A stretch of DNA of 64,000 bases from Kushneria sinocarnis (GTDB lineage Bacteria; Pseudomonadota; Gammaproteobacteria; Pseudomonadales; Halomonadaceae): NCBI RefSeq assembly GCF_003633775.1, contig NZ_RBIN01000004.1, positions 124,001-188,000 of the forward strand, read 5' to 3'. A model generated the notes under the pieces. That model had not been told where the DNA came from, did no database searches, and saw only the letters and a list, made by a program, of their open reading frames with translations. Of the stretch, positions 20,047 to 41,553 are shown one piece after another. Each line of letters begins with the position of its first letter. Position 1 is the stretch's first letter. A program made the position numbers and the translations under genes.

Positions 20047-22281
20047 CTATCCCGGCATCAGGATCAGCGCCCCCAGCGGCGGCAGGGTCAGGGTCAGTGA
20101 ACAGGGCTGTCCATGGGCCCTTGGCTGGCGCGCCGCTACCCCGCCACCATTGCCGACATTGCTGCCGCCATAGAGCTCGCTGTCGCTGTTGAACCGCTCG
20201 AACCAGCGGCCCTCGCGGGGCACGCCCACGGTGTAGTCCTGCAGCACCCGGGGCGTGAGATTGACCACCACCAGGGTGGCCCCACCGTCATGACTCCAGC
20301 GCAGCCAGGCCAGTACGCTGTTGTGCGCATCATCGCCGACCACCCATTCGAAACCATTCGGACGATCGTCCTGTTCATGCAGTGACGGCAGGGTGCGATA
20401 GAGCAGATTGAGCTCACGCACCAGGTGCTGAACCCCGGCATGACCGGCATCGCCGAGCAGCCACCAGTCGATTTCGCGATCGTGGCTCCACTCCTGCCAC
20501 TGGCCGAACTCGCACCCCATGAACAGCAGCTTGCGCCCGGGATGGGTCCACATGAAGGTGAGATAGGCCCGCAGGCCGGCGAACTGCTGCCAGCGATCGC
20601 CCGGCATCCGGGTGATCAGCGATCCCTTGCCGTGCACCACTTCATCATGGGAGATCGGCAGCACGAAACGCTCCGAGTAGGCGTAGACCATGGCAAAGGT
20701 CATCTGGTGATGGTGGTAGCTGCGATAGAGCGGGTCCTGCCCCATGTAGCTCAGGGTGTCGTGCATCCAGCCCATGTTCCACTTCCAGTCGAAGCCCAGC
20801 CCGCCCTCGCTCACCGGCGCGGTCACGCCCGGCCAGGCCGTGGACTCTTCGGCAATCATCACTGCCCCCGACACTTCCTCGAGCACCACCTCGTTGAGAT
20901 GGCGCAGGAAGTCGATCGTTTCGAGATTCTCCTGACCGCCGTAGCGGTTGGGAATCCACTCGCCCTCGCGGCGCGAGTAGTTGCGATAGAGCATGGAGGC
21001 CACGGCATCCACGCGCAGCCCGTCGATGTGGAATTCGCGCAGCCAGTGCAGCGCCGAGGAGAGCAGAAAGCCGTGGACCTCGCGGCGGCCGAGATTGTAG
21101 ATGTAAGTGTTCCAGTCCTGGTGAAAGCCCTCGAACGGATGGCTGTACTCATAGAGCGCGGTACCGTCGAACCGGGCCAGCCCGTGCGGATCGGTGGGAA
21201 AGTGGGCCGGCACCCAGTCGAGAATGACGCCGATCCCGGCCACGTGACAGGCATCGACGAAGGCCGCGAAATCCTGCGGCGAGCCGAAACGGCCGCTGGG
21301 CGCAAACTGTGACAGTGGCTGATACCCCCAGGAACCGCCGAAGGGGTGCTCCATGATCGGCAGCAGCTCGACATGGGTGAAGCCCATCTCGCTGACGTAG
21401 GGAATCAGCGATTCGGCCAGCTCCCGCCAGCTGTAGCAGGGGCCATCGTCGCCGCCATGGCGGCGCCAGGAAGCGGCATGCAGCTCGTAGATCGAGATGG
21501 GCGCCTCGCTGGCCTGACGCAGGGGGCGGGCTGCCAGCCACTCGTCGTCGCGCCACTCGATGGGCGCCGGATCGGCCACCACCGAGCCGGTCAGCGGCGG
21601 TGGCTGCGTGGCCAGCGCGACCGGATCGGCCTTGTGCAGCAGCTGGCCATCCGCTCCGATCAGCTCGTAATGGTAGACCGCGCCGGGGGCCAGCCGCGGG
21701 ATGAACAGCTCCCAGACCCCGGACGGATGACGCCGGCGCATCAGATGGCGGCGGCCATCGTGGCGATTGAACTCCCCGATCACCGAAACCCGCCGGGCAT
21801 TGGGCGCCCACACTGCAAAACGCACGCCGGCCACGCCCTCCACACTCATCGCGTGCGCGCCCAGACAGGCCCCCAGCCGGCGATGCGTCCCCTCGCCGAT
21901 CAGATAGAGATCGAGCTCGCCGAGCAGCAGCCCGAAGCTGTAGGGGTCCTCGACCACCTCCTCGCCCCACGGCCAGCGCACCCGCAGCAGATAGGGCTCG
22001 ATATAGTCCAGGTGGGCCACGAACAGCCCGGGCAGCCGGCTGCGCCCCGGCCGCGCCAGCAGCCGGGCCGGCGTCTCGCGGGAGAGCACCTCGACGCCGA
22101 TCGCCCCGGGCAGCCAGACTCGCAGGATGACCCCGCCATCGGGCTGCTCATGCGGTCCCAGCACGGCAAAGGGGTCGCCGTGGCGCCCCTCGCACAGCGC
22201 CTGGGCGGTATGCTCGTCGAGCTCCCGATCCGGTGCGGCAGTACCGGCGGCGGCCGACTCGATATGGCTGAAATCACTCAT
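20047..22281 (-). CDS. glgB: 1,4-alpha-glucan branching enzyme, copy 1
   Basis: Introduces alpha-1,6 branches into linear glucan. 744 residues with the full GlgB plan: an N-terminal N1 domain, a CBM48 domain ([16 protein letters not shown]), a GH13 barrel and a C-terminal domain ending [13 protein letters not shown]. Catalytic blocks: [13 protein letters not shown] (nucleophile Asp), [10 protein letters not shown] (acid/base Glu), [11 protein letters not shown] (transition-state Asp). The start overlaps the treS-mak stop (ATGA, 22278-22281), so it is the last, translationally coupled gene of the glycogen/trehalose operon. It is clearly diverged from the second GlgB at 37772-39994, so it is not a recent duplicate. 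Confidence 0.96.
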
Positions 22282-39994: not shown

Positions 39995-41553
39995 GCGCGC
40001 CTGCCGGTGCGAGCCAGTACCCGGTCCGAGGCCACCAGCGTCGAATAGAGATCGGCATAGGGCTGTACCGACAGTCGCCACTGATAGTGGATCGCCATCG
40101 CCGCACGGCGCATGGCGTAGAACAGATCGGTCGCCCCGAAGACCCGGAAGGCGCGCCGGATGGCCTCCTGGAAGTCATCCGGGCTCATCTCGTCGAACAG
40201 AAAGCCGGTGACGCCGTCCTCGATGGTATCGGCCAGCCCGCCGGTGCGGTGGGCAATCGGCAGCGAACCGAAACGCTGGGCGTACATCTGCGACAGCCCG
40301 CAGGGTTCGAAACGTGATGGCATCAGCAGGAAATCACTGCCGGCGAACAGACAGCGCGCCTCCCGCTCGCTGAAACCGATGCTGACCCCGATGGCGCCGG
40401 GGAAGCGCGCCGCCAGGTTGCGCAGGGCATTCTCGATCGGCGGCTCGCCGCAGCCGATCACCACGATCTGGCCGCCGGAGCGCACGATCGACTCCGCCAC
40501 GGCGATGGTCAGGTCCAGCCCCTTCTGATGTACCAGCCGCGACACCACGGCAAACAGCGGACCGTGGCTGACCGCCAGCCGGAAGCTGCGCCTGACATAC
40601 TCGGTATTGGCCCGCTTGCCGGCCCAGTCGCTGGTGGCGAAGGAGCGCGCCAGGTAGGTATCGGTACGCGGGTTCCAGCTGTCATCGATCCCGTTGACGA
40701 TGCCGGTCAGCCGCCCCTGCCCGGCCAGATCGGCCAGCAGCCCGTCGAGCCCGCAGCCGAATGCCGGGGTGGTGATTTCGCGGGCATAGGTGGTGCTGAC
40801 GGTGGTGATGTGATCGCTGTAGACCAGCCCGGCCTTCATGAACGAAAGCTGATCGAAGAACTCGAGCCCGCCTGCTTCGAAGGCGGAGTCCGGCACCCCC
40901 AGCCGGGCGGCGCTGGTGCGCGAAAACAGTCCCTGATAGGCCAGATTGTGGATGGTGAAGACACAGGGAGTGGTCACGCCACTCCAGCGCAGATAGCCGG
41001 CGGCCAGTCCCGCCTGCCAGTCGTGCAGATGCAGCAGATCGGCCTGCCAGGGCGCGGCAACCGGCTCGTGACGGTCATGGCCTTCACACAGCTGGGCGGC
41101 TGCCAGCGAGAGCCGGCCAAAGCGGATATCGTTGTCGCTCCAGTCCCGGCCCTGGGGGTCGAGATAGGGTGACCCGGGACGCTCATAGAGTTCCGGACAG
41201 ATCAGCGTGTAGACGATCAGCCCCTCGGGCAGCTCGATCCGGCCCAGCCGGCAGGAAGGAATTTCCGCCCGCCCCGGCAGTTCGGCCACCACGGTGATCG
41301 GCCAGCTGCCGTTGATGACCTGCGGATAGCCGGGTATCAGCACCCGTACATCGTGATGCACCTGCAGCGCGCGGGGCAGCGCCGCCGAGACATCCCCCAG
41401 GCCACCGACCTTGACGAAGTCGGCAATTTCGGAGGTGACGAACAGAACCCGGTGACCGACCGGCTCACCGTCACGGCCGCGACGCTCGGCATCGTTGCCG
41501 GCTTCGATGTCGGCCGGGGTTGAAGCAGTATTCCGGGAAGCCAGAACTACCAT
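39991..41553 (-). CDS. glgA: Glycogen synthase GlgA
   Basis: GT5 glucosyltransferase extending alpha-1,4-glucan from ADP-glucose; some GlgA enzymes in GlgE loci also make maltose-1-phosphate. 520 residues. The N-terminal [13 protein letters not shown] motif binds the sugar nucleotide; [17 protein letters not shown] and the C-terminal [16 protein letters not shown] complete the GT5 signature. A roughly 30-residue N-terminal extension is dispensable by comparison. GAGGGAG lies eight bases before the ATG at 41553. It is the first gene of the ten-gene operon; no glgC is present in the window. Confidence 0.94.

What the first reader, a model, noticed from the sequence alone, without database searches (positions are those of the whole stretch)
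20047..41553. Closed glycogen-trehalose cycle encoded in one ten-gene operon
Seen: glgA, glgB2, treZ, malQ, treY, DUF2934, glgX, glgE, treS-mak, glgB1, all on one strand, with 4-base ATGA overlaps at glgA/glgB2, glgB2/treZ, treZ/malQ, malQ/treY and treS/glgB1. Established: GlgA/GlgB build glucan, GlgX/TreY/TreZ turn it into trehalose, TreS/Mak/GlgE turn trehalose back into glucan. Inference: a single promoter controls a reversible reservoir between osmotically inert glycogen and the osmoprotectant trehalose. Pseudomonas carries, as I recall, most of these genes split over several operons in one region; the fully fused arrangement here would enforce fixed coupling. No glgC or glgP is in the window, so the ADP-glucose source for GlgA is open.
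Basis: partly seen in the sequence, partly recalled or inferred. Interest (0 to 1): 0.75.

Follow-up and report, generated by a model that had tools for sequence, protein, structure and literature searches.

The report
Fused trehalose-glycogen operon of Kushneria
A salt-loving bacterium carries, in one ten-gene row, the enzymes that interconvert the protective sugar trehalose and a glycogen-like polymer; the pathway is known from Pseudomonas, but here it is joined in one row, no glycogen phosphorylase was found in the genome, and in related genera one of its enzymes has become a conserved, probably catalytically dead protein.

Summary
In detail: glgA-glgB2-treZ-malQ-treY-DUF2934-glgX-glgE-treS/mak-glgB1 lie on one strand (window 41553 to 20047, minus) with the five 4-base overlaps named. 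The genus is Kushneria (Halomonadaceae). The other 26 GlgE carriers among 121 family genomes keep the one-strand order (three lack glgB2). In 59 named loci outside the family, nearly all Pseudomonadaceae, the GlgE module is convergent (14) or not in the fetched stretch (45). The biochemistry, with a glgC-less, UDP-glucose-fed GlgA and a possible futile cycle, is published for P. aeruginosa: a new variant of a known system.

The cycle is not closed: the genome also has otsA-otsB, galU and two trehalases. It lacks glgC and all phosphorylase models searched; 23 of 27 GlgE carriers of the family lack phosphorylase, against 1 of 15 elsewhere in the class. So the published GlgP-GlgX route out of branched glucan seems missing.

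By-product: in five related genera the glgB2 slot holds a short GlgB paralogue without the full GH13 catalytic triad (0 of 23 sequences), one clade, under purifying selection. The window's glgB2 is full length and intact. A single transcript is likely, not shown.

The parts
39991..41553 (-). glgA, glycogen synthase (GT5), 520 aa from the ATG at 41553
   Evidence: NF001901 796.9 bits (cut-off 649), TIGR02095 490.9 bits (cut-off 328.45); PDB glycogen synthases
37772..39994 (-). glgB2, full-length branching enzyme beside glgA, 740 aa, catalytic D/E/D intact
   Evidence: NF003811 987.1 bits (cut-off 741); GlgB_N, CBM_48, Alpha-amylase, Alpha-amylase_C; catalytic columns DED; E. coli GlgB 1m7x 757.8 bits
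35973..37775 (-). treZ, malto-oligosyltrehalose trehalohydrolase, 600 aa
   Evidence: TIGR02402 660.2 bits (cut-off 538.8)
33835..35976 (-). malQ, 4-alpha-glucanotransferase, 713 aa
   Evidence: TIGR00217 314.9 bits (cut-off 205.65)
30980..33838 (-). treY, malto-oligosyltrehalose synthase, 952 aa
   Evidence: TIGR02401 900.9 bits (cut-off 498.65)
30482..30970 (-). DUF2934 protein, 162 aa; domain at residues 7-39, the rest rich in Pro
   Evidence: PF11154 46.6 bits (cut-off 22); same place in most Pseudomonas loci
28088..30376 (-). glgX, glycogen debranching enzyme, 762 aa
   Evidence: TIGR02100 1099.4 bits (cut-off 640.9); PDB GlgX 7u39, 2vnc, 2wsk
25815..28019 (-). glgE, alpha-1,4-glucan:maltose-1-phosphate maltosyltransferase, 734 aa (a more upstream GTG start at 28070 is possible)
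   Evidence: PF11896 190.8 bits; PDB GlgE 4u2y 562 bits, FRVDNPHTK and AEAFTRP conserved
22278..25769 (-). treS-mak, trehalose synthase fused to maltokinase, 1163 aa
   Evidence: TIGR02456 925.5 bits (cut-off 678.35), TIGR02457 535.6 bits (cut-off 375.05)
20047..22281 (-). glgB1, branching enzyme after treS, 744 aa, catalytic D/E/D intact
   Evidence: NF003811 985.2 bits (cut-off 741); 45 of 45 glgB1-type rows in the tree set, this one included, keep DED
41554..42128 (-). gap between glgA and divergent cynS; candidate promoter region (sigma-70-like site 41994-41967, 10 of 12)
   Evidence: scan: 2 sites found against 1.7 expected in the stretch, so the site is not significant
19985..20044 (-). 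two consecutive strong GC hairpins right after the glgB1 stop; candidate end of the transcript (no T run, so not listed by the terminator scan)
   Evidence: fold of 19975-20046: -55.1 kcal/mol, z -4.78, 0 of 200 shuffles as stable; the gaps after DUF2934, glgX and glgE give z +0.24, +0.71, +0.77

Best explanation
This is the Halomonadaceae form of the Pseudomonas GlgA-TreYZ/GlgE trehalose and alpha-glucan network, fused into one likely transcription unit. Inferred flow: GalU makes UDP-glucose; GlgA polymerises it to alpha-1,4-glucan; MalQ, TreY and TreZ turn linear chains into trehalose; TreS-Mak makes maltose 1-phosphate; GlgE and GlgB1 build branched glucan; GlgX releases chains for TreY/TreZ. 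Each polymerase has its own neighbouring branching enzyme (GlgB2 by GlgA, GlgB1 after TreS/GlgE). As no glycogen phosphorylase was found, glucan should not return as glucose 1-phosphate by that route; its carbon can leave as trehalose (then glucose, by trehalase) or as free glucose, or stay as a stress-protective sink. OtsAB is a second, independent trehalose source. Shown here: gene content, order, conservation, no match for glgC or GT35, presence of otsAB, galU and trehalases. Inferred: co-transcription, donor sugar, fluxes, roles of the two GlgBs.
For: Families over curated cut-offs. Order kept in 26 of 26 other GlgE carriers of the family sample and one-strand in 21 of 21 named Halomonadaceae loci, 5 of which lack glgE and treS. 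No glgC over cut-off in 120 of 121 family genomes, the window's included. No TIGR02093, TIGR02094 or PF00343 match in the own genome. otsA 519 bits, otsB 163.7 bits (cut-off 68.05), galU 340.9 bits (cut-off 326.8); two GH37 trehalases. Five 4-base overlaps; twin hairpin after the last gene only. P. aeruginosa genetics and enzymology of the same enzymes (PMC8084333, passages).
Against: No transcript, enzyme or metabolite data. Gaps of 105, 68 and 45 bases leave room for internal promoters; in relatives some gaps exceed 200 bases. Promoter-like sites are at chance number and only sigma-70 was scanned. Terminator-like sites are at chance in 19300-31100 (3 found, 3.3 expected) but above it in 31100-42600 (8 found, 3.6 expected, sd 1.9); 4 of these 8 are one place inside treZ, at 36445-36466. 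OtsA lies below its curated cut-off (519 against 564.85), as do all 43 family genomes with a match. An alpha-glucosidase-like GH13 (L222) and a sucrose-phosphorylase-like GH13 (L223) could be further outlets. Four GlgE carriers, one of them Kushneria (G090), do have a TIGR02094 phosphorylase, so its absence is not a rule.
Confidence: 0.68

Rival explanations
1. The glgE block is a one-way sink: branched glucan made by GlgE/GlgB1 is not mobilised to trehalose in this strain, because GlgX needs chains trimmed by a phosphorylase that is absent. The polymer would serve desiccation tolerance and excess carbon; osmotic trehalose would come from GlgA-TreYZ and OtsAB only.
For: No GT35 match in the genome. 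In P. aeruginosa GlgX prefers DP4 branches, debranching is argued to require GlgP, and loss of GlgE-derived glucan, not of trehalose, causes desiccation sensitivity (PMC8084333, passages).
Against: glgX is kept in all 27 fused loci and all 21 Halomonadaceae loci; the chain-length preference of this GlgX is unknown; short outer chains made by GlgB could be direct GlgX substrates.
Confidence: 0.35
2. Two transcription units: glgA to DUF2934/glgX and glgE to glgB1, each with its own promoter as predicted for Pseudomonas, only placed head to tail.
For: The 105- and 68-base gaps flank glgX.
Against: No hairpin better than shuffles in these gaps while a very strong one follows glgB1; no promoter-like site in them, though only sigma-70 was scanned; glgB1 stays behind glgX when glgE-treS are missing.
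Confidence: 0.3
3. Ordinary gene clustering: the genes are neighbours by descent and the fused order has no regulatory meaning.
For: One-strand mixtures of the modules in other orders occur elsewhere in the class (6 of 14 loci), so order differs freely between lineages.
Against: Five 4-base overlaps in the window and one order in all 27 GlgE carriers of the family sample.
Confidence: 0.2

Closest known systems
P. aeruginosa PAO1 trehalose/alpha-glucan network (Woodcock et al. 2021, PMC8084333; passages seen)
   Same: Same enzymes; glgA-treZ-malQ-treY-glgX block and glgE-treS/pep2-glgB block; no glgC
   Different: There two predicted operons, an orphan glgP and no otsAB. Here one row, two glgB, otsAB present, no phosphorylase found
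P. syringae DC3000 treYZ and treS operons (PMC8982409; passages seen)
   Same: Gene sets PSPTO3125-3130 and PSPTO2760-2762 match the two halves of this operon
   Different: The two operons lie at separate loci
GlgE pathway (TreS, Pep2, GlgE, GlgB) as reviewed in PMC11046441 (passages seen)
   Same: Trehalose to branched glucan through maltose 1-phosphate
   Different: In actinomycetes also a GlgC-GlgM arm; here no glgC (glgM was not searched) and a GlgA-TreYZ block is joined on
Plant isoamylase ISA1-ISA2 (PMC12510319, listing and start of abstract only; that ISA2 is a non-catalytic paralogue is recalled)
   Same: A GH13 paralogue of an alpha-glucan enzyme kept without catalytic function; a works-like comparison for the short glgB2 of related genera
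   Different: Debranching, not branching lineage; no interaction is shown for the bacterial protein; does not apply to the window's own intact glgB2

Membership tests
GlgE pathway cluster (treS-mak, glgE, glgB) | TreS fused to maltokinase, GlgE and a GlgB together | tested here: met
GlgE pathway cluster (treS-mak, glgE, glgB) | GlgE catalytic stretches conserved | tested here: met
   alignment; that these stretches hold the nucleophile and acid/base is recalled
Pseudomonas-type GlgA-TreYZ/GlgE network | glgA-treZ-malQ-treY-DUF2934-glgX order | tested here: met
   same order, plus glgB2 inserted after glgA
Pseudomonas-type GlgA-TreYZ/GlgE network | no glgC | tested here: met
   best own-genome match 30.5 bits against a 424.9 cut-off
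Pseudomonas-type GlgA-TreYZ/GlgE network | GlgA uses UDP-glucose | not testable with these tools
   needs an enzyme assay; galU present
Pseudomonas-type GlgA-TreYZ/GlgE network | orphan glgP elsewhere in the genome | tested here: not met
Pseudomonas-type GlgA-TreYZ/GlgE network | otsA/otsB absent | tested here: not met
Pseudomonas-type GlgA-TreYZ/GlgE network | two separate operons | tested here: inconclusive
   genes run on one strand without a hairpin between the blocks; transcription itself untested
Classical GlgC-GlgA glycogen operon | glgC and glgP present | tested here: not met
GlgB branching enzyme (window glgB2) | GlgB_N, CBM48, GH13 barrel, C domain and catalytic D/E/D | tested here: met
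GlgB branching enzyme (short glgB2 of related genera) | catalytic D/E/D and CBM48 | tested here: not met
   0 of 23 rows with all of D/E/D (some keep one or two of the letters); only Alpha-amylase_C found by Pfam in the 3 scanned

The most novel reading that the evidence does not exclude
In Halomonadaceae the glgA-linked branching enzyme of this operon has been converted once into a conserved catalytically dead subunit, a bacterial counterpart of plant ISA2, that binds GlgA's glucan (or GlgA/TreZ) and keeps it linear for TreY, while the network in most carriers runs without glycogen phosphorylase, so that the polymer exchanges only with trehalose. Kushneria shows the state before catalytic loss, with one working branching enzyme per polymerase.
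Probability: 0.3. Interest if true: 0.7.

Novelty: new variant of a known kind. Interest (0 to 1): 0.5.

Why it matters
P. aeruginosa work left open how cells avoid a futile cycle between trehalose and alpha-glucan and why two glucan synthases coexist (PMC8084333 passages). Here the two blocks are joined, the phosphorylase thought to gate debranching was not found in 23 of 27 carriers of the family sample, and each synthase has its own branching enzyme, one of which looks catalytically dead in sister genera. That gives a natural series (intact glgB2, dead glgB2, no glgB2; with and without glgE; with and without phosphorylase) in which the open questions can be tested in halophiles.

Tried and rejected
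Considered and rejected: (1) glgC or a phosphorylase elsewhere in the genome: only sub-cut-off matches to glgC and no GT35 match. (2) A second glycogen operon: all 12 PF00128 matches of the genome lie in this operon, in an alpha-glucosidase-like GH13 (L222) or in a sucrose-phosphorylase-like GH13 (L223), and the GlgB-type matches in this genome are glgB1 and glgB2 only. A second glgA or malQ was not searched for. (3) The DUF2934 frame as spurious: it passes PF11154 and holds the same place in most Pseudomonas loci. (4) Short glgB2 as plain decay: dN/dS is 0.057-0.151 for its C-terminal 215 codons and 0.10-0.32 for the rest in 10 pairs, against 0.055-0.131 for glgB1, 0.034-0.190 for glgA and 0.091-0.168 for treZ in the same pairs; so the dead barrel part is looser than its neighbours but far below 1. 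The 23 rows have open frames of 425-505 aa. Against this: the G055 match carries a stop, G565's matches are pieces on three contigs and G571's are broken, so some lineages may be decaying. (5) Fusion as unique to this family: rejected.

Led nowhere: sigma-70 promoter scans, at chance number; paper searches for a dead GlgB (0 papers; listings: none seen on a bacterial GlgB pseudoenzyme) and for this operon in Kushneria or Halomonas (listings: none seen). The library holds only open-licence PMC papers. A paper on trehalose in the halophile Chromohalobacter (PMC3308980, passages) mentions TreYZ only as background in the passages seen. Two scripts ended in error: file name; repeated; after its main tables were printed; coordinates redone.

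Limits: gene-order scripts dropped matches under 50-60 bits (DUF2934 excepted). Trees left out the broken glgB1 of G055 and used 13 and 12 of the 27 named GlgB sequences. The tree roots on Pseudomonas, one row of which fell outside; the tree is a quick search without bootstrap. The structure model (mean pLDDT 74.9) used an alignment that also holds active GlgBs, which may pull it towards that fold. The phosphorylase comparison used TIGR02093 and TIGR02094 in the family but PF00343 in the class, and related genomes are not independent. Outside the family I left out three weak GlgE matches (G327 at 33.8 bits, over the cut-off; G345 and G412 below it); G327 and G412 have phosphorylase matches.
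Full report
What is there. On the minus strand of the window, 41553 to 20047, stand glgA, glgB2, treZ, malQ, treY, a DUF2934 gene, glgX, glgE, treS-mak and glgB1. Junctions are -4, -4, -4, -4, +9, +105, +68, +45 and -4 bases. Upstream and divergent is cynS (cyanase). The stretch after glgB1 folds into two strong hairpins (z -4.78), while the three larger internal gaps fold no better than shuffles. 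A sigma-70-like site (10 of 12) lies upstream of glgA, but the number of such sites is that of shuffles. Terminator-like sites in 31100-42600 are more than expected (8 against 3.6, sd 1.9), four of them one place inside treZ; I take them for coding-sequence artefacts, which is not shown.

Whose genome. The window lies in a 3.51 Mb, 18-contig genome. So the genus is Kushneria, family Halomonadaceae; the species is not known.

Rest of the network. glgC: 1 of 121 family genomes (G089, not this one) has a match over the cut-off. Glycogen phosphorylase: no match in the own genome by TIGR02093, TIGR02094 or PF00343. Of the 27 GlgE-positive genomes among 121, 4 have a phosphorylase, all of the TIGR02094 type (G023, G087, G090, G113); G009 has only a 54-residue C-terminal match with a stop, perhaps a remnant. 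Outside the family, 15 genomes of the 369-genome class draw have a strong GlgE match (three weak ones left out), and 14 of these 15 have a PF00343 match, G380 not. The contrast, 4 of 27 against 14 of 15, gives Fisher p = 7.5e-7; this is descriptive only, because genomes are related and the models differ. The own genome has otsA (519 bits, below the 564.85 cut-off, as in all 43 family genomes with a match), otsB, galU, an alpha-glucosidase-like GH13 and two GH37 trehalases. In one search, 18 of the 27 GlgE carriers have a full-length otsA match, so GlgA-TreYZ is the only one of these two trehalose routes found in the other 9.

Gene order elsewhere. In 26 of 26 other GlgE carriers of the family sample the detected operon genes lie on one strand in the same order; three lack glgB2, and malQ and treY form one open frame in four. 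Of 80 named loci, 21 are Halomonadaceae, all one-strand; 5 of these (four of seven Billgrantia, and Salinicola acroporae) lack glgE and treS but keep glgB1 behind glgX. The other 59 are nearly all Pseudomonadaceae; none shows the GlgE module co-directional, 14 have it downstream on the opposite strand, and 45 show none of it in the fetched flank of at most 10 kb. An inversion of the three-gene module would convert one arrangement into the other; neither this nor the direction of change was tested. Elsewhere in the class, 14 GlgE loci were read (G431 not fetched): 6 join treY or treZ with glgE, treS and glgB on one strand in other orders, none of the 14 with a glgA match in its stretch; the one from the same order (G282) has glgE-treS-glgB alone. 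So fusion as such recurs; the glgA-first form was seen only in this family.

Two branching enzymes, one dead in relatives. The window's glgB2 has all four GlgB domains and the catalytic D/E/D. In the 26 relatives the slot holds a full-length protein in 10, nothing in 3, and in 13 a protein of 425-489 aa without the N-terminal GlgB region (Pfam on three short forms finds only Alpha-amylase_C). With further loci, 0 of 23 short sequences (21 genomes, two present twice) have D/E/D, against 15 of 15 full-length glgB2 and 45 of 45 glgB1-type rows. A tree of the C-terminal domain puts all glgB2, short and full, on one branch (100/99.9) and the short ones on one branch within it (95/83); the enlarged quick tree agrees (SH-aLRT 92 and 90). 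dN/dS in 10 close pairs is 0.057-0.151 for the C-terminal part and 0.10-0.32 for the rest. By profile score (over 500 bits, full-length G009 set aside) about 28 of 275 family genomes carry the short form, one in pieces (my reading of the table; 7 were not read residue by residue). All 28 also show a glgB1-type match, though with a stop in the frame in G055 and G115. Genomes read without glgB1 (G007, G016, G031) keep a full, intact glgB2 beside glgA. Short forms persist in five unnamed Salinicola-group loci without glgE, so the link is to the glgA-treZ side. The model of the Modicisalibacter protein (pLDDT 74.9) matches bacterial GlgB structures best.

Mechanism. PMC8084333 (passages) shows for P. 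aeruginosa that GlgA works with UDP-glucose, that TreY/TreZ make trehalose from GlgA glucan, that loss of GlgE glucan causes desiccation sensitivity and loss of trehalose salt sensitivity, and discusses a futile cycle held back because GlgX needs GlgP. PMC11046441 (passages) repeats much of this. By homology the Kushneria operon does the same chemistry. Without GlgP, either GlgX works alone and glucan exchanges with trehalose and glucose, or branched glucan is a sink. I put the first slightly ahead because glgX is kept in every fused locus. Why a dead GlgB2 is kept is unknown; a glucan-binding or scaffold role beside GlgA is my inference.

Known or new. Enzymes, pathway and glgC-less state are known. 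The fused family-wide order, the frequent absence of phosphorylase and the conserved dead GlgB2 were not seen in the listings and passages I looked at, which cover open-licence PMC papers only; no paper was read whole. Verdict: new variant of a known kind.

Noticed in passing
L105:4604-6055 and the glgB2 slot of 20 further genomes: Short GlgB paralogue without the full catalytic triad between glgA and treZ, one clade, under purifying selection.
   Followed up: yes
G073, G083, G109, G117 (loci L065, L067, L071, L074): malQ and treY run together in one open frame of 1675-1682 aa; NCBIfam NF011077 is a similarly long model.
   Followed up: partly
window 54749-58806: eda-pgl-zwf on the minus strand with divergent hexR, followed by a sugar MFS transporter at 58887-60539: an Entner-Doudoroff cluster.
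   Followed up: no
window 42129-42605: cynS (cyanase) divergent from glgA; kept in the nearest relative G090, not detected in the fetched stretches of the other 25.
   Followed up: partly
window 47963-49477: Choline-sulfatase (TIGR03417, 855 bits), a likely source of choline for glycine betaine (role recalled).
   Followed up: no
L223 7278-13457 (G000 contig C4, outside the window): Glucosyl-3-phosphoglycerate synthase-like protein, a mannosyl-3-phosphoglycerate phosphatase-family protein and a sucrose-phosphorylase-like GH13: perhaps a glucosylglycerate osmolyte locus.
   Followed up: no
window 42686-45159: Two adjacent fasciclin-domain proteins, then a FemAB-like protein.
   Followed up: no
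G009:C7:98006-98167: 54-residue match to the C-terminal end of glycogen phosphorylase in a 64-aa frame with a stop: possible glgP remnant in Phytohalomonas.
   Followed up: no
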